Origin: Alphaproteobacteria bacterium | Lineage (GTDB): Bacteria; Pseudomonadota; Alphaproteobacteria; Sphingomonadales; Sphingomonadaceae | DNA length: 33,119 nt | Assembly: GCA_019232625.1 (NCBI GenBank) | Contig: JAFANP010000026.1 | Coordinates: forward strand, 1-33,119 | Direction of reading: 5' to 3' | Shown here: in pieces, positions 12,400 to 20,610 of the stretch | How the letters are laid out: the number at the start of each line of letters is the position of its first letter | How positions within the stretch are numbered: the stretch's first letter is position 1 | The notes under the pieces: generated by a model | The model's input: the letters and a program-made list of their open reading frames with translations, nothing else | What the model was told of the DNA's origin: nothing | Database searches by the model: none | Program-made: the position numbers and the translations under genes

Positions 12400-13467
12400 A
12401 TGGCCGTCAACGCAAAGAACTGGCAGGAAATGAAGAAGCCCAACGCCCTCGAGAAGCGCGCCGCGGGCGGCGATTCGCGGCGCCGGGCGACCTTCGTCGC
12501 CGAGCCGCTGGAGCGGGGCTTCGGCCTCACCCTCGGCAACTCACTGCGCCGAGTCCTCCTCTCCTCGCTTCAGGGCGCCGCGGTCACCTCGATCCGAATC
12601 GAGGGCGTGCTCCACGAATTCTCGAGCCTCGCCGGAGTCCGCGAGGACATCACCGACCTCGTCCTCAATGTGAAGCAGATCGCGCTGAGGATGGAGGGCG
12701 ATCAGCCCAAAAGGCTTCAGCTCTCCGCGACCGGCCCCGGCGAGGTCACCGCCGGCCAGATCGCGACGTCGGGCGACATCGAGGTGATGAACCCGGGCCT
12801 GGTCCTGTGCCACCTCGACGAGGGCGCGACCTTGAACGCCGAGTTCACCGCCGAGGCCGGCAAGGGCTATGTCCCCGCCGCCTCCAACCGCCCGGCCGAC
12901 GCGCCGATCGGGATCATCCCGGTCGACGCGCTCTACAGCCCGGTGCGCCAGGTCAGCTACAAGGTCGAGAACACCCGCGTCGGCCAGGAGCTCGACTACG
13001 ACAAGCTGACGCTTACCATCGAGACCGACGGCACCGTCACCCCGGACGACGCGCTCGCTTATGCGGCGCGGATCCTCCAGGACCAGCTCCAGCTCTTCGT
13101 CCATTTCGACGAGGGCATGACGATGACGAGCGTGCCCACGGGCGGAGTCTCGGCCGTCTCGACCGGCGACACCGACCACGACGCCAACCAGCTCAATCGC
13201 TACCTTCTCAAGAAGGTGGACGAGCTGGAGCTCTCCGTGCGCTCGGCCAACTGCCTGAAGAACGACAACATCATCTACATCGGCGACCTCGTCCAGAAGA
13301 CCGAGGCGGAGATGCTGAGGACCCCGAACTTCGGCCGCAAGAGCCTGAACGAGATCAAGGAAGTGCTCTCGTCCATGGGGCTGCGGCTGGGCATGGACAT
13401 CCCCGGCTGGCCGCCGGAGAATATCGAGGAAATGGCCAAAAAATTGGAACAGGAGCTGCTCGGCTAA
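12400..13467 (+). CDS. rpoA: DNA-directed RNA polymerase alpha subunit
   Basis: The protein has 355 residues. Alpha dimerises to nucleate RNA polymerase assembly and its C-terminal domain contacts UP elements and activators. The N-terminal domain shows [41 protein letters not shown] and [14 protein letters not shown]; the C-terminal domain shows [37 protein letters not shown]. It ends [13 protein letters not shown]. The final codons are unusually AT-rich for this gene (GCCAAAAAATTGGAACAG), unlike the second copy of the same tail downstream, suggesting that the 3' end may have been replaced. A terminator follows directly; the usual next gene, rplQ, is not visible. Confidence 0.99.
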
Positions 13468-13486
13468 GCCGGCGGCATCGCTTTCC

Positions 13487-13516
13487 AAAGGGGTCGCTTC
13501 GGCGGCCCCTTTTTTT
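13487..13516 (+). terminator. Rho-independent terminator after rpoA
   Basis: Stem GGGGTCGC (13490-13497), loop TTCG, and GCGGCCCC (13502-13509, one G-T pair) followed by seven T residues (13510-13516). It lies 19 bases after the rpoA stop. It ends the ribosomal operon here. A related terminator sits after the second copy of the rpoA tail at 13724-13749. Confidence 0.85.
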
Positions 13517-13723
13517 GGCCCTCGATGTTCGAAGGCGGGTACCGCCGGAGATCGGCCGGGTCAGTCGGCAGTGCGGGGCACTGCCGGCCCGGCCGACAGA
13601 GGGAGCGCAGCGAAGCTGCGGGACCGACCCGTGACAAAGAAGAGATGGCGAAGAAGCTGGAGCAGGAGCTTCTGGGGTAACGTCGCAAAGTACTACTTTG
13701 CGCCGGGCCAGGCCGGAACAAGG

Positions 13724-13749
13724 AGGGTCGCCGAGAGGCGGCCCTTTTT
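13724..13749 (+). terminator. Second terminator, in the duplicated rpoA-tail unit
   Basis: AGGGTCGCC (13724-13732), loop GAGA, GGCGGCCCT (13737-13745) with one G-T pair, then TTTTT (13745-13749) and GTTT. It is similar in sequence to the terminator after rpoA and lies at a comparable place after tail copy 2, so it was probably duplicated along with the tail. Confidence 0.7.
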
Positions 13750-14009
13750 GTTTGCCATGTCCTGGATGTACGAAGGCGGTGAGAGCGCTGGGCATCGGAG
13801 AATGATCCGGACGGACCGGCGTCGAGGGGGCGCCCGGATCATCAGAGGGGCCGCAGCGCAGTTGAAGGCCCGGTTCTTGACAAGGAGAGAGAGCGAAGAA
13901 GCTTGGGCACGAGTCTCTGGCCGACAAAAGGGCGCGCGGCGAAGCTGCGGAACCAGCACCTAACGACAAGGAAATGTCGACGAAGCTTGAGCAGGAGCCT
14001 CTAGTCTGG

Positions 14010-14266
14010 GGTTTACGCTAGGCGTAATGTAGCGGGACGGCCCGTATCCGGAGGGCGCGACCTTGTCCGCTTTCTCCTCGCTGTCCAGAGCGGACGCCGG
14101 CCCGTCGGAGATTGGCTGGAGAGGCCGGCCGTGCGGGGAACCGCCGCGTGGGGCCGACAGAGCAGCCGCAGCCCAGGAGGACGCGCCTCATCCAGGACGA
14201 TGGCACAGGCAGCCGCCTCACCCGGACGACGCTACCGTCCGGGAGCGGACTGGCGAATTCCTTACA
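14010..14266. other. Non-coding stretch between repeat array and cassette
   Basis: No gene is supported here. It holds several small hairpins, such as TTACGC TAG GCGTAA (14013-14027), and another GGCCGACAGAGCAGCCGCAG segment (about 14151-14170) resembling the GGCCGACAGAGGGAGCGCAG upstream of tail copy 2. An in-frame extension of the next gene into this stretch (from 14131) lacks a convincing protein character. Confidence 0.5.
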
Positions 14267-14322: not shown

Positions 14323-14697
14323 ATGAGTAGGCCTCGAAAGGCAAACGCCCCCGCTTCCGTGGAGGTCGCTCGGGATGTTACGTTTACGAGATTCGTTGCC
14401 GATAAAATTATCTTTGCGGAGATCGGGCGTGACCTCGAGGTGTCTTTCCTGCAGTACGGACCCCTTCATACGCGCATAACGGATCAGGGTGACCATGAAG
14501 GTGTCGTGGCCAAGAACGTGGTGACCGAAGTGGCTCGAATGCGGACCGATTATCCCACGATGGTCACCGCCATGATGACATTCCTTCGCGAAGGCTTGAC
14601 CGGCGGTAGGTTAAAGCGAGACGCTGTCATCGACGCCATCGCGGAGTGGGGCGACGAAGCCGCGACGCAAGAGTCACTCGCAAAGGCTCAAGCATGA
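14323..14697 (+). CDS. Unknown protein, first gene of three-gene cassette
   Basis: This 124-residue protein is not recognised. It begins MSRPRKANAPASVEV; the start was chosen because it follows the predicted promoter and the upstream in-frame part looks like translated non-coding repeat. A short basic N-terminus is followed by a likely beta-rich region (FTRFVADKIIFAEIGRDLEV, then SFLQYGPLHTRI) and a helical C-terminal half. There is no signal peptide, membrane segment or obvious enzyme motif. Base composition is clearly more AT-rich than the flanking chromosome and codons such as TTA, AAA and ATA appear. Its stop overlaps the next start (ATGA), so the genes form an operon. Acquisition with the adjacent rpoA-tail repeats is likely. 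Confidence 0.75.
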   Translation: MSRPRKANAPASVEVARDVTFTRFVADKIIFAEIGRDLEVSFLQYGPLHTRITDQGDHEGVVAKNVVTEVARMRTDYPTMVTAMMTFLREGLTGGRLKRDAVIDAIAEWGDEAATQESLAKAQA

Positions 14698-15389
14698 CCA
14701 TGCGCTTGCAAGACGGTGTGGGGACCCATCGGGGGCTCATCGGGGTCAAGGGAGCGGAGGATGCTAGAGAGTTTCTTGCGGAAGGCATTGTAGCTTCTGC
14801 TCTTGGTGACACCGAGTTTCACAGAGCTTTCGTATCTGCTCGCGAAGATGATAAATTTTCTGCTGTCAGCACGAAGGGGCTTTTGAAGTTCAAGAGCTTC
14901 AAACCACTCGCACTTAAAACGTTGATCTCGGAGCGGCAACTTCATGACTTTGGTCTCTGTCTAGTCGGGGACGAAGATGTCCAGCGGTGGTTGGTTCCAA
15001 TTGATGCCGTTGAAGTAACAGAGGGCGCTTATGAGCCTGATTGGCTTCCAAGTCTCAAGAGCCGAGTGGACGAATTAAGAGAGTTGGCGCATGAGGAGGG
15101 GCTGCCATTCAGTGAGGAATCCGCTGAGCAGGCTATTGCATTCGTCACGCAGCTACGAGACTATCATCGTCCTAGCGCCTTTCTCATTGGAAACGGCAAT
15201 GTAAGGCTTCTTTGGGCGAGCTCGCATGGCGAGCAGATCGGCCTTCAATTTCTCGGCAAGTTTGAGGTTCAGTACCTGTTGATGGCAAGACGGGAGAGTC
15301 GCCTTGCCACGGTAATGGGAGCTGATCAGATCGACTCGATCATGCGCTACATTCAAGCAGCAGGCTTGGCGCAGCTTTTTAGGCGGTGA
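14694..15389 (+). CDS. Unknown protein, second gene of three-gene cassette
   Basis: This 231-residue protein begins MTMRLQDGVGTHRGLIGVKG, with its ATG overlapping the previous stop by four bases. The N-terminal half (to about residue 120) is of unknown type. The C-terminal part contains RPSAFLIGNGNVRLLWASS followed by GEQIGLQFLGKFEVQYLLM, which resembles a small beta-sheet pattern ('..NGN.R..W....G..IGLQFLG...VQY...') that I associate with uncharacterised proteins from accessory regions; the exact family name is not known to me. No signal peptide, membrane segment or catalytic motif is visible. Composition is AT-rich like the first gene. Together with the third gene it may act as one system. 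Confidence 0.75.
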   Translation: MTMRLQDGVGTHRGLIGVKGAEDAREFLAEGIVASALGDTEFHRAFVSAREDDKFSAVSTKGLLKFKSFKPLALKTLISERQLHDFGLCLVGDEDVQRWLVPIDAVEVTEGAYEPDWLPSLKSRVDELRELAHEEGLPFSEESAEQAIAFVTQLRDYHRPSAFLIGNGNVRLLWASSHGEQIGLQFLGKFEVQYLLMARRESRLATVMGADQIDSIMRYIQAAGLAQLFRR

Positions 15390-15865
15390 CTTCAGCAGAA
15401 GCCGAGAAGCGACGATTTGTCGCACGGGAGGAAGACGTGACGCGCTACGTAGGAGGGTCACATTTTGATCCCGACACGGGCGAGGTGAACGGAAGTGCAT
15501 TCGAGCGAACGCCGAAGGACACAGACGGCGTCTCGGTGACGCGCTGCCGATTTTTTTCAGCCGAGGTCGAGAAGGATCACGCTGAGATAAGGCGAATCGT
15601 GGGTTCGAGGCTTAAACTCGGAAAGACAGCGGTGTTCGTCGAGCTGAACACCGGAGCTATCCTTGATGCCTTGGCAAGTTTCGAAGAGGATGTCGCTGTA
15701 GTTGAGGATCCACTTCCTCGGGATGGGGAGGCGCTACCGAACCCTGCTCATGCTTTGATCATCGGATTTCCCTTTAAGGGCGAAGCAGTGGGATCCCTGA
15801 GGTCGGAAGAAGCAGGAGACGCGTTGCGAAAAATCATTCGTCGGAAGTTCCCTGCAGTGGCTTGA
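15386..15865 (+). CDS. Unknown protein, third gene of three-gene cassette
   Basis: This 159-residue protein starts at a GTG that overlaps the previous TGA (GTGA). It contains REEDVTRYVGGSHFDPDTGE, then NGSAFERTPKDTDGVSVTRC and, further on, RLKLGKTAVFVELNTGAIL and PAHALIIGFPF. The pattern 'R.....SHF.....V...AF.......D..SV.R' resembles uncharacterised proteins often found beside the second gene's family, but I cannot name it. No membrane segments. The AT-rich composition matches the two genes before it. The operon seems to end here; 400 bases without a gene follow. Confidence 0.7.
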   Translation: MTSAEAEKRRFVAREEDVTRYVGGSHFDPDTGEVNGSAFERTPKDTDGVSVTRCRFFSAEVEKDHAEIRRIVGSRLKLGKTAVFVELNTGAILDALASFEEDVAVVEDPLPRDGEALPNPAHALIIGFPFKGEAVGSLRSEEAGDALRKIIRRKFPAVA

Positions 15866-16549: not shown

Positions 16550-16626
16550 GAAACGGATCGGCGGAATCTGGAGGGACGGACCGTGCGCTCGCGAGGCGCG
16601 GCGGGGCTGTCCGGTGGAGGACGCCG

Positions 16627-17481
16627 ATGGCGAAGCGAGCAAAGCGAGAGACGGGAGAGACGGGAGCGACGGGAGCGACGGGAGCGGAGGGAGCGAAGGG
16701 AGCGACGGGGGCGAGGGGAGCGAGGAAGAGGTGGCGGGGAGTGTTCCTGCGGGCGTTGGCGCGGAGCGGGAACGTGCGGCTGGCCGCGCGGCGGGCGGGC
16801 GTGGACAAGACGACGGCTTATGCCCTGCGGCACCGCGACGGGCGCTTCGCCGCCGCGTGGCTGAGGGCGAAGGAGTCGGCACAGGCGCGGGTCGGCGCGG
16901 GGGCCGGCGCGGGGGCCGGTGCCGGGGCGGGCGGCGGCGGGGCGCCGGCGGGGCTGGTCGTGCGGGTGTCGAAGAAGGACGGGGCTCAGCTCGTCGCGGC
17001 GGGCGAGGGACGCTGGTCGCGCGAGGTCGAGCGGCGGTTCCTCGCCTCGCTCGCGCACAAGGCGACGGTGCGCCGGGCGGCGGCGGACGCCGGCGTCTCG
17101 ACCACCGCGGCCTACCAGCGCCGCCGGCGCGACCCCGGCCTCGCCCGCCGCTGGGCGGAGGCGAAGGAGCAGGGGATCATGCGCGTCCAGACGCTGCTGA
17201 TCGAGGCCGCGGAGGCGCGGCTCGACCCGCGGATCGACGCCGACGCCGAGCGGCTTCCGCCGGTGAGCGTCGCCGAGGCGATCGCCATCGTCAGGCTGCA
17301 GGGCGGCGGCGGCGGAGGGCGTGGGGGCGGGGGGCGGCCCGCGGGCGGGCCGGGCGACGGGCGGCGCTGGCGGCCGGTCGAGCTGGTGCCGATCGAGACG
17401 GCGCGCGAGGACATCCTGCGGCGGATCGACGCGATCCGGGCGCAACGCGCGCGCGACGGCCGCGAGGGAGAGCCCTGGTGA
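16627..17481 (+). CDS. Terminase small-subunit-like DNA-binding protein with collagen-like repeat
   Basis: The protein has 284 residues, starting MAKRAKRETG; GGTGGAGG lies six bases before this ATG, which decides the start. Residues 10-32 are a Gly-X-Y run (GETGATGATGAEGAKGATGA), encoded by a degenerate nine-base tandem repeat. Two similar helix-turn-helix-like units follow: FLRALARSGNVRLAARRAGV-DKTTAYALR (about 39-70) and FLASLAHKATVRRAAADAGV-STTAAYQRR (about 135-165), separated by a Gly/Ala spacer. The C-terminal part is basic and Gly-rich, ending in REDILRRIDAIRAQRAR. Directly before the large terminase with a GTGA overlap, it is best read as the DNA-recognition partner for packaging in a GTA- or prophage-like system. 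Usual small terminases are shorter, so the duplication is odd. Confidence 0.7.
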   Translation: MAKRAKRETGETGATGATGAEGAKGATGARGARKRWRGVFLRALARSGNVRLAARRAGVDKTTAYALRHRDGRFAAAWLRAKESAQARVGAGAGAGAGAGAGGGGAPAGLVVRVSKKDGAQLVAAGEGRWSREVERRFLASLAHKATVRRAAADAGVSTTAAYQRRRRDPGLARRWAEAKEQGIMRVQTLLIEAAEARLDPRIDADAERLPPVSVAEAIAIVRLQGGGGGGRGGGGRPAGGPGDGRRWRPVELVPIETAREDILRRIDAIRAQRARDGREGEPW

Positions 17482-18788
17482 AGGCGTGGCGCGACCTGGT
17501 CGGCCTGCTCGCGTCGGCGCCGGCGGAGGAGGCGCGGGCGATCGTCGCGGCGCTGGGCGAGGCGGAGGCGCGCAGCCTCCTCGCCGACTGGGGGGCGTGG
17601 CGGCATTCCGGGCAGGGCGCGCCGGACGGCGACTGGCGGGTGTGGGTGATGCTCGCCGGCCGCGGCTTCGGCAAGACCCGCGCCGGGGCGGAGTGGGTGG
17701 CGGACTTCGCCCGCGCCCATCCCGGCGCGGCGATCGCCCTCGTCGCCGCGACTCCGCTCGAGGCGCGGCGGGTGATGGTCGAGGGGCGCTCGGGGCTGCT
17801 CGCCGTCGCCGGCCGCCGCGAGCCGGTCGCCTGGGAGCCGAGCCTCGGCCGGCTGACCTTCTTCGGCGGCGCCCAGGCCCAGATCTTCTCCGGCGCCCAT
17901 CCGGACGGGCTGAGGGGGCCGGAGCATCACATCGCCTGGTGCGACGAGCTCGCCAAATGGGAAAGGCCGGCCGAGGCCTGGACCAACCTCCAGCTCGGCC
18001 TGAGGTGCGGCGCCCGGCCGCGGACGCTGGTGACGACGACCCCGCGCAGCCTCAAGGCGCTGAGGGCGATACTCGGCGAGGAGGGGGTGGCGGTGAGCGG
18101 CGGGCCGTCGCGGGCCAATCCGCACCAGTCTCCGGCCGGGCTGGCGGCGATGGAGCGGATGCTCGGCGCCACCCGCCTGGGGCGGCAGGAGCTTGGCGGC
18201 GAGCTGCTCGCCGAGGCGGAAGGGGCGCTGTGGCCGCGCGCCCTGATCGAGCGCTGCCGGGCGGCGGGCGGAGGGCCTCATGTGCGCGTGGTGGTCGGGG
18301 TCGACCCGCCGGCGGGCTGCGACGGCGATTCGTGCGGGATCGTCGCCTGCGGGCTCGGCGCGGACGGAATCGGATACGTGCTCGCCGACCTCAGCGCCGG
18401 CGGGCTCTCGCCCGAGGGCTGGGCGCGCAAGGTGGCGGCTGCCGCGGAGGCGCTCGGAGCCCACCGGGTGGTGGCCGAGGCGAACAATGGCGGCCGGATG
18501 GTGGAAAGCGTGCTTCGCGGCGCGGGCGCGGGGCTGCCGGTGAAGCTCGTCCATGCGAGCGAGGGCAAGACGGCGCGGGCGGAGCCGGTGGCGACCCTGT
18601 TCGAGAGCGGCCGGGCGAAGCTGGCGGGCTGCTTCCCAGAGCTCGAGGACGAGATGGCCGGCTTCGCCTATGGCGGCGGCTATGACGGGCCGGGGCGCTC
18701 GCCCGACCGGGCCGACGCGATGGTCTGGGCGATGACGGAGCTGATGCTCGGGCCGGCGCAGGCCGAGCCGCGGGTCCGGCGGCTGTGA
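17478..18788 (+). CDS. Terminase large subunit, gene transfer agent type
   Basis: The protein has 436 residues. Large terminases are ATP-driven DNA packaging motors with a nuclease domain. The Walker A motif GRGFGKTRAG is at 61-70, the Walker B AWCDELA has D157/E158, and TLVTTTPRS (about 183-191) matches the coupling motif. The C-terminal RNase H-like nuclease is seen from VVVGVDPPAG (D276), VVAEANNGG (E334) and SPDRADAMVWA (D410, D413), so all key acidic residues are present. GTG start overlaps the previous stop. The order small-like then large terminase fits the start of the alphaproteobacterial GTA cluster, but the portal, protease and capsid genes that should follow are absent; opposite-strand genes begin 264 bases later. 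Confidence 0.92.
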   Translation: MKAWRDLVGLLASAPAEEARAIVAALGEAEARSLLADWGAWRHSGQGAPDGDWRVWVMLAGRGFGKTRAGAEWVADFARAHPGAAIALVAATPLEARRVMVEGRSGLLAVAGRREPVAWEPSLGRLTFFGGAQAQIFSGAHPDGLRGPEHHIAWCDELAKWERPAEAWTNLQLGLRCGARPRTLVTTTPRSLKALRAILGEEGVAVSGGPSRANPHQSPAGLAAMERMLGATRLGRQELGGELLAEAEGALWPRALIERCRAAGGGPHVRVVVGVDPPAGCDGDSCGIVACGLGADGIGYVLADLSAGGLSPEGWARKVAAAAEALGAHRVVAEANNGGRMVESVLRGAGAGLPVKLVHASEGKTARAEPVATLFESGRAKLAGCFPELEDEMAGFAYGGGYDGPGRSPDRADAMVWAMTELMLGPAQAEPRVRRL

Positions 18789-19052: not shown

Positions 19053-19814
19053 TCAGGTGAAGTCGATGAACCCTTTGAGCGTGGTGTCGGCGGTGCGGCG
19101 GCGGTTGAGCTCGAAGACGCCGAGGCCGTTGCTGCTTCCGCTCGGGTTGGTGTTGCCCTCGACGGTGCGCAGCGGGCCGGCGAAGGGCTGGCGGACGAAG
19201 CCGGCATGGCCGTGGCCGCCGCCGAAATCGAGGATGAAGACGTGGCCGGGCTTGACCAGCGACGGGTCGGCGAGGGCGGCGGCGCGGGTGATGAGGCGGC
19301 GCGGCTGCCGGGCCTTCACCCGGTTCCAGGCGTCGAGGCAGCCGGCGGTGGCGGGGAACGGATTGGCGACGCCCTGGTGGACGGCGGCCTCGCGGAAGCA
19401 CCAGTGGACGAAGGCCATGCACCAGAAATTGCCCGGCGGCGTCCGCACCGAGGCGAGATAGAGGTCGACCATCGGCCCGCGGTTCGAGCCGAGCGGCACC
19501 TCCATCACGCCGAGCTGGGTCACCGCCATGCCGAGCGCGGCGACGGCGAGGCTCGAGGCGGTCGGAGCGGTCACCGAGGCGCCGAACAGCGCCCCCCAGG
19601 TCAGTGCCCCGACCTCGCCGTCGATCGCCAGCGGCTGGCCGGCGCGATCGACGTTCTGGCTCTGGAAGGTCCGGACGAGCGACTTGAAGCGGGCGTCGAA
19701 CCGGCCCGGCGGGGAGGTGGAGACATAGCCGCGCGCGGCGAGGCCGGCGGCGATGTGGGCGACGACGGCGGCGTCGCTCTCGCCGACCTTGATGATGCGT
19801 CCGGGGAAATCCAT
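19053..19814 (-). CDS. Peptidoglycan-binding and CHAP-type amidase, endolysin-like
   Basis: The protein has 253 residues and begins MDFPGRIIKVGESD, with AGGAGGG about seven bases before the ATG. Residues about 15-78 look like a PG_binding_1 domain (IAAGLAARGYV, FQSQNVDRAGQPLAIDGEVG, TWGALFG). The C-terminal half is a CHAP/NlpC-like amidase: GNFWCMAFVHWCF places the nucleophile at C132, GGGHGHAGFV supplies H201 or H203, and TVEGNTNPSG supplies a third residue. There is no signal peptide, as in many phage-type lysins, so delivery would need another route. It lies 31 bases downstream of a secreted cysteine-rich protein gene in the same orientation. Proximity to terminase genes suggests a phage or GTA origin, but such amidases also occur elsewhere. 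Confidence 0.8.
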   Translation of the reverse strand: MDFPGRIIKVGESDAAVVAHIAAGLAARGYVSTSPPGRFDARFKSLVRTFQSQNVDRAGQPLAIDGEVGALTWGALFGASVTAPTASSLAVAALGMAVTQLGVMEVPLGSNRGPMVDLYLASVRTPPGNFWCMAFVHWCFREAAVHQGVANPFPATAGCLDAWNRVKARQPRRLITRAAALADPSLVKPGHVFILDFGGGHGHAGFVRQPFAGPLRTVEGNTNPSGSSNGLGVFELNRRRTADTTLKGFIDFT

Positions 19815-19845
19815 GGCTCGGCCCTCCTGAGGCGGTCGCGCGGCC

Positions 19846-20610
19846 TCACGGCTTGAGGAAGAAGCCGGAGCATTCGGGATGAATGCCGGCGGCGAAGCGG
19901 CGGTCGTCGGGGCAGCAATCGAGCCCGTCGCGGCCGACGAAGGTGCCCGGGCGGCAGGCGGCCGGGAGCAGGATCCTCCAGCGCGTGCCGCGGCTGTTGG
20001 GGCCGCCGAGGCTCGCCTTGGAATAGAGGCAGTCGAGGGCGCGGCGGCGGCGCGGGTCGGCCTGGCCCGCATTGTAGCGCGCCTCGCCGAGGCGGCGGCA
20101 GAGCGCCAGCCGGGAGACGTCGCGGGCTCGGAGGGCGCGGGCCGAGGCGAGGACCGGCGCGCAGCGCGGATCGGCGGCGCCGCCCAGGCAATCGACGCGG
20201 CGGTCGTAGCCGGAGGCGCTCACCGTCCGGTCGAGCGCCGCGCACTGCGCCGCAAGCGCCGCCGGAACGTCGCTTCGGCCGCAATTCGCGGCGTAGAAGG
20301 CCGGGGTGGCGTCGATCGTCCGTGGCGACGGGCCGCCGCCGCGATAGACGGCGCTCATGCAGGTCTCGTCGCCGTCGCCGAAGCAGATGCGGCAGGCGCG
20401 CCCGACGACGCAGGGGCGCGGCGCGGTGCGCGGCGATGCCGGGTCCGAGACGAATTTGCCGCCATTGTCGGCCGGGTTTGCGACGACGTGCGCATCGCAG
20501 CCGGCGGGGCAGGAGAGGCCGTCGTCGTAAATGGTGAGCCGCATCACCTGGCCTCCGGCCGGGCCGGCGGTCGTCAGCAGCAAGGCGAGGCCGGCGAGGA
20601 GAAGGCGCAT
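19846..20610 (-). CDS. Secreted cysteine-rich protein of unknown function
   Basis: The protein has 254 residues. The N-terminus MRLLLAGLALLLTTAGPAGG is a clear signal peptide, with cleavage probably near residue 20. The mature part has 16 cysteines, several closely spaced (CVVGRACRICFGDGDETC, DCCPDD), and ends in HPECSGFFLKP. Many disulphides are likely in the periplasm or outside the cell. I recognise no domain. It precedes the amidase gene by 31 bases on the same strand, so they may be co-transcribed. The upstream gap of about 110 bases separates it from a divergent Crp/Fnr regulator. Confidence 0.75.
   Translation of the reverse strand: MRLLLAGLALLLTTAGPAGGQVMRLTIYDDGLSCPAGCDAHVVANPADNGGKFVSDPASPRTAPRPCVVGRACRICFGDGDETCMSAVYRGGGPSPRTIDATPAFYAANCGRSDVPAALAAQCAALDRTVSASGYDRRVDCLGGAADPRCAPVLASARALRARDVSRLALCRRLGEARYNAGQADPRRRRALDCLYSKASLGGPNSRGTRWRILLPAACRPGTFVGRDGLDCCPDDRRFAAGIHPECSGFFLKP

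What the first reader, a model, noticed from the sequence alone, without database searches (positions are those of the whole stretch)
13429..14009. Array of decaying copies of the rpoA 3' end, with terminator, downstream of rpoA
Seen directly: copy 2 encodes the same last residues of RpoA ([12 protein letters not shown], stop) as the gene itself but with other synonymous codons, and is followed by a related terminator; copies 3 and 4 retain AKKL.. and EM..KLEQE.L in more decayed form. Synonymous divergence means copy 2 came from a functional, diverged rpoA rather than from simple local duplication of the present allele. The genuine tail is AT-rich compared with the rest of rpoA, as if it were brought in by an element that rebuilds the gene's end on insertion. 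This is what repeated site-specific integration at the 3' end of rpoA, or repeated recombination there, would leave. I know of no described integration site in rpoA.
Basis: partly seen in the sequence, partly recalled or inferred. Interest (0 to 1): 0.78.

Follow-up and report, generated by a model that had tools for sequence, protein, structure and literature searches.

The report
Duplicated and inverted rpoA gene tail
In a few related Sphingomonadales bacteria the last codons and stop signal of an essential gene (rpoA) have been copied, forwards and backwards, into the DNA just after it; this looks more like the scar of DNA-copying slips and later recombination than of a visiting mobile element.

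Summary
Downstream of rpoA (12400-13467) lie one intact copy of its last 13 codons plus stop (13639-13680) and two decayed copies (13882-13920, 13966-14004), in units with terminators and palindromes. Inverted and direct copies occur together in 4 of 25 congeneric rpoA loci (window genome, G003, G011, G014); the other 21 lack the inverted copy and any clear direct one. In 80 named Sphingomonadales loci neither passed threshold.

The carriers fall in a moderately supported six-genome clade; two members lack the array, one with a recombination-like junction. Two carriers have it directly before rplQ without an island, and no recombinase gene was found near rpoA in a carrier (G011 shows only 7 kb). 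Best reading: a direct-inverted-direct duplication by template switching at the terminator palindrome, later expanded and lost by recombination. Two AAA codons of the window's rpoA are exactly complementary to its terminator T-tract, suggesting that arm homogenisation rewrote coding DNA. The mechanism is inferred from sequence.

The parts
12400..13467 (+). rpoA (RNA polymerase alpha subunit), functional copy
   Evidence: ORF; 80 named relatives by tblastn
13426..13467 (+). tail copy 1: last 13 codons and stop of rpoA
13399..13443 (.). 5' (coding) arm of the long inverted repeat; includes GGCCAAAAAA (13434-13443)
13490..13516 (+). intrinsic terminator 1 (GC stem and T7 tract)
   Evidence: sequence and fold; the consensus scan did not list it
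13511..13552 (-). 3' arm: inverted copy of rpoA codons, beginning in the terminator T-tract
   Evidence: alignment; 0 of 1000 shuffles reach the score
13553..13595 (.). hairpin H1 with GTGC-GGG-GCAC apex
   Evidence: apex shared with G003 and G011
13606..13620 (.). hairpin H2, CGCAGC-GAA-GCTGCG
13639..13680 (+). tail copy 2, intact coding [13 protein letters not shown] and stop
13684..13702 (.). small palindrome after copy 2
   Evidence: (I18)
13725..13749 (+). terminator 2
   Evidence: not listed
13761..13779 (-). relic of the inverted arm in unit 2
   Evidence: (D10, 89% to 13520-13538)
13882..13920 (+). tail copy 3, decayed
   Evidence: (79% to copy 2)
13966..14004 (+). tail copy 4, decayed
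   Evidence: (77% to copy 2)
14005..14175 (.). unit 4 remainder: degraded terminator, inverted-arm and hairpin relics
   Evidence: (14102-14162, 75% to 13542-13601)

Best explanation
The array is a local mutational scar at the 3' end of rpoA, not a mobile element. Proposed steps: (1, inferred) in the ancestor of a six-genome clade, replication past the strong terminator hairpin switched template, copied about 40 bases of rpoA backwards, then returned to rpoA near codon -14 and copied tail and terminator again, giving a direct-inverted-direct structure; (2, inferred) the intervening palindromic stretch grew by further switches; (3, shown as pattern, cause inferred) the unit was expanded to four in the window genome and lost in two relatives, as recombination between the repeats would do, since every exchange restores an intact tail, stop and terminator; (4, suggested) homogenisation between the inverted arms rewrote synonymous codons of the functional gene (Lys codons to AAA AAA, the inverse of the terminator T-tract).
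For: Inverted arm and direct copy are present together in the same 4 of 25 genomes (inverted score 35-46, 0 of 1000 shuffles each; other 21 at most 20; direct copy 0 of 1000 in three carriers, 10 of 1000 in G011). Long-range pairs between rpoA codons and the region after the terminator: 30-35 in carriers, 0-25 in the other 21. G003 and G014 share the 208 bp unit at 86% identity; a G003+G014 clade is rejected (p-AU 0.00045) as is G000+G011 (p-AU 0.02), so one gain and two losses fits (3 changes). G015, which lacks the unit, joins copy-1-like sequence before the terminator to copy-2-like sequence from the terminator on. Shared bases in the inverted arm that differ from rpoA (TCGAAGGCRGCCAGC in G003 and G011) point to one origin. 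No dispersed relatives of the unit: in its own genome the best match outside the array has E 0.07; for G011, outside the rpoA loci, only 28-29-base matches covering its terminator. AAA at codons 8 and 9 from the end occurs in 0 of 20 non-carriers and in none of the other 3 carriers; the window's arm fits its own rpoA best of 25 (37; next 35; median 29).
Against: About 70-110 bp of hairpin DNA between inverted and direct copy is not explained by one template switch. Copy 2 of the window is perfectly coding although its flanks have diverged strongly, which asks for gene conversion or a recent event. The leucine/methionine difference near the end follows the host lineage in G003, G014 and the window, which needs conversion or homoplasy if there was one origin. 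Arm homogenisation is seen only in the window and, tied with G003's rpoA, in G014; in G011 another genome's rpoA fits the arm better (own tied second) and in G003 two do (own tied third). In the GC-rich sample at least 5 other of 222 ORFs reach inverted scores of 37 or more (top six listed), through REP pairs, a short near-repeat or probably spurious ORFs. Support for the six-genome clade is moderate (95/98, 85/89); shuffled labels need as few changes in 112 of 500; the AU groups were named after I had seen a first tree.
Confidence: 0.55

Rival explanations
1. Remnants of repeated site-specific integration: elements entered at the 3' end of rpoA, each restoring the tail, and later decayed, leaving att copies.
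For: Direct copies start at about the same point (-42/-43) in G000, G003 and G014; functional tails of G003 and G000 are synonymously odd, while copy 2 of G003 differs from the tail of its relative G015 at 1 codon; foreign-looking low-GC genes follow the array in the window.
Against: G003 and G014 have the unit with no island; no recombinase gene found near rpoA in the carriers (G011 judged on 7 kb only); nothing similar in phages or plasmids; in G014 it is the gene's own tail, not copy 2, that is nearer to G015 (copy 2 differs at 5 codons; own tail at 3 of 11 same-residue codons); the model does not predict the inverted copy.
Confidence: 0.1
2. Ordinary tandem duplication of tail and terminator by slippage or unequal crossing-over, with the inverted arm and hairpins arisen separately.
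For: Units share order and are head to tail; loss in G015 looks like recombination between direct repeats.
Against: The inverted copy occurs in exactly the genomes that have the direct copy, and in none of the 21 rpoA loci of the genus without it, so it is not a copy of a pre-existing feature of those loci.
Confidence: 0.2
3. A selected RNA device: tandem terminators and a long outer stem that stabilise or end the rpoA transcript and insulate rplQ.
For: Terminator hairpins are present after both tail copies in the window, G003 and G014; H1 keeps its GTGC-GGG-GCAC apex with different self-complementary stems in the window, G011 and G003; fold z-scores against 60 shuffles -8.6 (window), -8.4 (G011), -6.0 (G003), -4.5 (G014).
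Against: Absent in 2 of 6 clade members, decayed in units 3 and 4 and in G011; two non-carriers reach similar z-scores (G002 -6.0, G020 -4.7); template switching is proposed to make and keep stems without selection (PMC8794818, passages read).
Confidence: 0.12

Closest known systems
Quasipalindrome-associated template-switch mutation (E. coli thyA hotspot and lacZ reporters; PMC7202029, passages read)
   Same: Imperfect inverted repeats become more perfect by copying one arm from the other; could explain AAAAAA opposite the T-tract.
   Different: Here an essential gene's 3' end and its terminator form the palindrome, and a direct copy of the gene tail accompanies it.
Inverted triplication / tandem inversion duplication (PMC4689423, passages read, on yeast; the bacterial work is recalled)
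   Same: Direct-inverted-direct order with palindromic junctions.
   Different: Cases known to me are kilobases or more and often unstable (recalled); this one is about 200 bp and shared by species.
Template-switch creation and maintenance of RNA hairpins (PMC8794818, passages read)
   Same: A single switch makes a new stem; compensatory changes in one event.
   Different: Studied there in rRNA genes; here across the end of a protein gene.
Genomic islands at 3' ends of protein genes (recalled, e.g. guaA, trmE)
   Same: Direct repeat of the gene's 3' end.
   Different: No recombinase or island associated in the island-free carriers; extra inverted copy.
REP/BIME palindromes with Y1 (RAYT) transposases (recalled)
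   Same: Short GC-rich hairpins after a gene.
   Different: The unit was not found dispersed in the genome; other REP-like pairs are.

Membership tests
Genomic island with tyrosine or serine recombinase at a gene 3' end | recombinase gene adjacent to the attachment site | tested here: not met
   PF00589 and PF00239: no match (E <= 0.001) on the contigs with rpoA in the window genome (33 kb), G003 (95 kb), G011 (only 7 kb); nearest in G014 about 170 kb and 216 kb away
Genomic island with tyrosine or serine recombinase at a gene 3' end | direct repeats flank an inserted island | tested here: not met
   In G003 and G014 the repeats are about 207 bp apart with rplQ next; in the window low-GC genes follow the array, but no further tail copy was seen beyond them in the 600 bases after each unit that were compared
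Integron cassette array | integron integrase | tested here: not met
   TIGR02249: 0 of 26 genomes over the cut-off of 265 bits; weaker matches in 26 of 26 and in 14 of 14 controls, the strongest two genes on G003:C11 (pieces of 90-94 bits), not the rpoA contig
REP/MITE-type dispersed element | copies elsewhere in the genome | tested here: not met
   best match outside the array E 0.07; GTGCGGGGCAC once in 339 kb of G000 sequence, in the array
Group II intron or diversity-generating retroelement | reverse transcriptase near the repeat | tested here: not met
   PF00078: none in the window genome or G014; in G003 and G011 on other contigs
Template-switch (direct-inverted-direct) duplication | inverted copy lying between direct copies | tested here: met
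   4 of 4 carriers (G011 direct copy partial)
Template-switch (direct-inverted-direct) duplication | junctions at palindromes or microhomology | tested here: inconclusive
   arm begins in the terminator T-tract in the window and G003; the other junction is blurred by hairpin DNA
Quasipalindrome correction | arms more alike within a genome than between genomes | tested here: inconclusive
   own rpoA is best fit of 25 in the window, tied best in G014, tied second in G011, tied third in G003
Template-switch duplication | arises de novo in replication | not testable with these tools
   needs an experiment

The most novel reading that the evidence does not exclude
The end of an essential gene and its terminator form a self-renewing palindromic repeat: terminator and decayed tail copies act as templates that rewrite the gene's last codons, while selection keeps only synonymous changes and recombination between units always restores a working end. 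A terminator could thus edit coding sequence without any mobile element.
Probability: 0.22. Interest if true: 0.62.

Novelty: new variant of a known kind. Interest (0 to 1): 0.4.

Why it matters
Gene-tail repeats are easily read as integration scars. This locus shows how such a repeat can come from local copying errors at a terminator hairpin, with an inverted copy as the tell-tale. If arm homogenisation is confirmed, it is a route by which a non-coding terminator changes codons of an essential gene, and it gives a test case for template switching in bacterial evolution.

Tried and rejected
Integration site: tested by recombinase families, island-free relatives, phage and plasmid searches; rejected as main reading. 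Integron: no integrase over the cut-off. Dispersed palindromic element: no copies found; a hairpin between rpoA stop and terminator in the non-carrier G002 gave only itself, its own reverse strand and 7 weak scattered matches in 7 other genomes. Other G000 genes with tail copies: 224 ORFs (direct) and 222 (inverted) in 333 kb; only rpoA has both convincingly; one further ORF passed both thresholds (39 and 30) but looked like a GC-rich frame with gapped matches. Copies of the tail beside rplQ: none convincing in 14 genomes (direct hits of 26 in G011 and 28 in G041, an inverted one of 26 in G024; in G002 and G024 the strong hit was rpoA itself; upstream sequence was short in G000, 606 bases, and G004, 1103). 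Rfam: 3 matches up to E 1, all far below gathering score. The three low-GC genes after the array (about 14323-15865, G+C 55% over all) have no Pfam or PHROG match, one weak PADLOC match (E 0.001), and a relative of the middle one in 1 of 395 other genomes; they were not pursued. Literature: rpoA with integration site, genomic island and att site (0 papers); with guaA, rpsI and integrase (2, not relevant by title and abstract start); with rplQ, intergenic and Sphingomonas (0). I found no report of this array within those searches of an open-licence library.

Full report
Observation. The window's rpoA ends at 13467. Its last codons recur at 13639-13680 (exact protein, [13 protein letters not shown] and stop), 13882-13920 and 13966-14004; start-to-start spacing is 213, 245 and 84 bases. 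Aligned, the stretches follow one plan: tail, terminator, inverted stretch, hairpins, next tail; unit 3 is truncated and unit 4 degraded. Copy 2 differs from the gene at 10 of 14 codons, none changing the protein. A control over 224 ORFs of 333 kb of this genome gave 17-28 matching bases of 42 for all but rpoA (32) and one probably spurious ORF beside a short near-repeat (32).

Directly after the terminator lies an inverted copy of rpoA codons, so the coding DNA and the stretch after the terminator form a long imperfect palindrome around the tail and terminator. In the genus, 26 genomes are held and 25 give an rpoA end (G022 none). The inverted score is 35-46 in the window genome, G003, G011 and G014 and at most 20 in the other 21; 0 of 1000 shuffles reach it in each of the four. 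The direct copy scores 60, 48 and 44 in G003, G014 and the window (0 of 1000) and 28 in G011 (10 of 1000); the best non-carriers have 25 (G002, 27 of 1000) and 24 (G019, 37 of 1000) without an inverted copy. Of 80 named Sphingomonadales rpoA loci, the best 80 of a larger capped list, 0 passed the threshold of 27 for either within 1.2 kb (two loci had only 492 and 638 bases; a copy as decayed as the direct one in G011, score 26, would be missed). One of the 80 (L029, UBA2369) appears to be the contig of G016, judging by its length and coordinates.

History. Trees of rpoA and of rpoA without its last 25 codons plus rplQ, 23 genomes, put the four carriers in a clade with G010 and G015 (support 95/98 and 85/89). 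G014 pairs with G015 and the window with G010; holding G003+G014 or G000+G011 together is rejected (p-AU 0.00045 and 0.02), with the caveat that I had seen the first tree when I named these groups. The unit of G003 and G014 is alignable over 208 bp at 86%, and that of the window and G011 over 144 bp at 76%. So one gain and two losses is the simplest history (three changes), although shuffled labels need as few in 112 of 500, so the tree alone does not show clustering. In G015 the bases just after the stop resemble copy 1 and those from the terminator on resemble copy 2 of its relatives, as expected for a deletion by recombination. In G011 the two downstream tail relics are separated by a stretch with a 90-residue ORF on the other strand.

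Mechanism. Integration is disfavoured: G003 and G014 carry the unit with rplQ as next gene; no PF00589, PF00239, PF01797 or PF00078 match lies on the rpoA contig of the window genome, G003 or G011 or within 170 kb of rpoA on that of G014 (in G011 the contig is 7 kb with 1.2 kb downstream); no integron integrase passes its cut-off in 26 genomes; phage and plasmid collections have no match; the unit was not found dispersed. An inverted copy between direct copies is what template switching yields. Switch-away at the terminator, backward copying of about 40 bases and return at codon -14 would give the plan in one event. That step is inferred, and the 70-110 bp of hairpins between inverted and direct copy need further events.

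A possible consequence for the gene. The last 14 codons show the highest synonymous divergence of 24 genomes in G003 (0.61) and the window (0.57), the tail being the most deviant of 82 windows of 14 codons in each; G011 and G014 are not unusual (0.40, 0.38), and the 20 non-carriers range from 0.24 to 0.42. In the window, Lys codons 8 and 9 from the end are AAA AAA, where 20 of 20 non-carriers have AAG AAG. GGCCAAAAAA (13434-13443) is the exact inverse of the end of the terminator (TTTTTTTGGCC at 13510-13520), and the window's arm fits its own rpoA better than that of any of the other 24 genomes (37 against 35 at best). This is what quasipalindrome correction does in E. coli (PMC7202029, passages read). 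In G014 the own rpoA ties for best, in G011 one other genome's rpoA fits better and in G003 two do, so this is suggestive only.

Open points. Copy 2 of the window is perfectly coding while its surroundings have diverged, which suggests conversion from a functional tail or a recent exchange. The Leu/Met residue follows the host lineage. Both would follow from recurrent exchange between units, but that was not shown.

Known and new. Template switching, inverted triplication and hairpin homogenisation are known (PMC8794818, PMC7202029, PMC4689423: passages read; the bacterial duplication work is recalled). In the searches made no listed title or abstract start speaks of such an array at rpoA or at another gene end; long result lists were cut at 10-15. 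I file it as a new variant of a known mutational kind.

Noticed in passing
G000:C49 (L156 about 490-606) and the same place in 24 other genomes: The leader of rplQ has two predicted hairpins with many compensatory changes (8 and 9 pairs, 23-25 of 25 sequences paired, up to 6 pair types) and a conserved ACGAACG before the start region; no credible Rfam match in the window genome's copy (best E 0.14, under gathering). A candidate ribosomal-protein leader RNA.
   Followed up: partly
window 14323-15865: Three small low-GC genes (55% over all, 51-58% in 500-base windows) of unknown family right after the array; the middle one has a relative in 1 of 395 other genomes of the order.
   Followed up: partly
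window 16614-18788: Terminase large subunit (Terminase_6N/6C), with an endolysin-like CHAP gene at 19053-20072 on the other strand; possibly a gene transfer agent or prophage remnant.
   Followed up: no
L173, L174, L177, L179, L181 (G000 sample): A REP-like palindrome CCCCTCCCTGCACGCAGGGAGGGG and near-copies recur, often in pairs about 80 bp apart.
   Followed up: no
rpoA-rplQ junction in the genus: rplQ was not found beside rpoA (another contig, or over 200 kb off) in 12 of 25 genomes, the window genome included; some are drafts with short contigs. That the two genes are usually neighbours is recalled.
   Followed up: partly
L145 about 1328-1400 (G002): A large hairpin with the same GTGCGGGGCAC apex sits between the rpoA stop codon and the terminator in a non-carrier.
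   Followed up: partly
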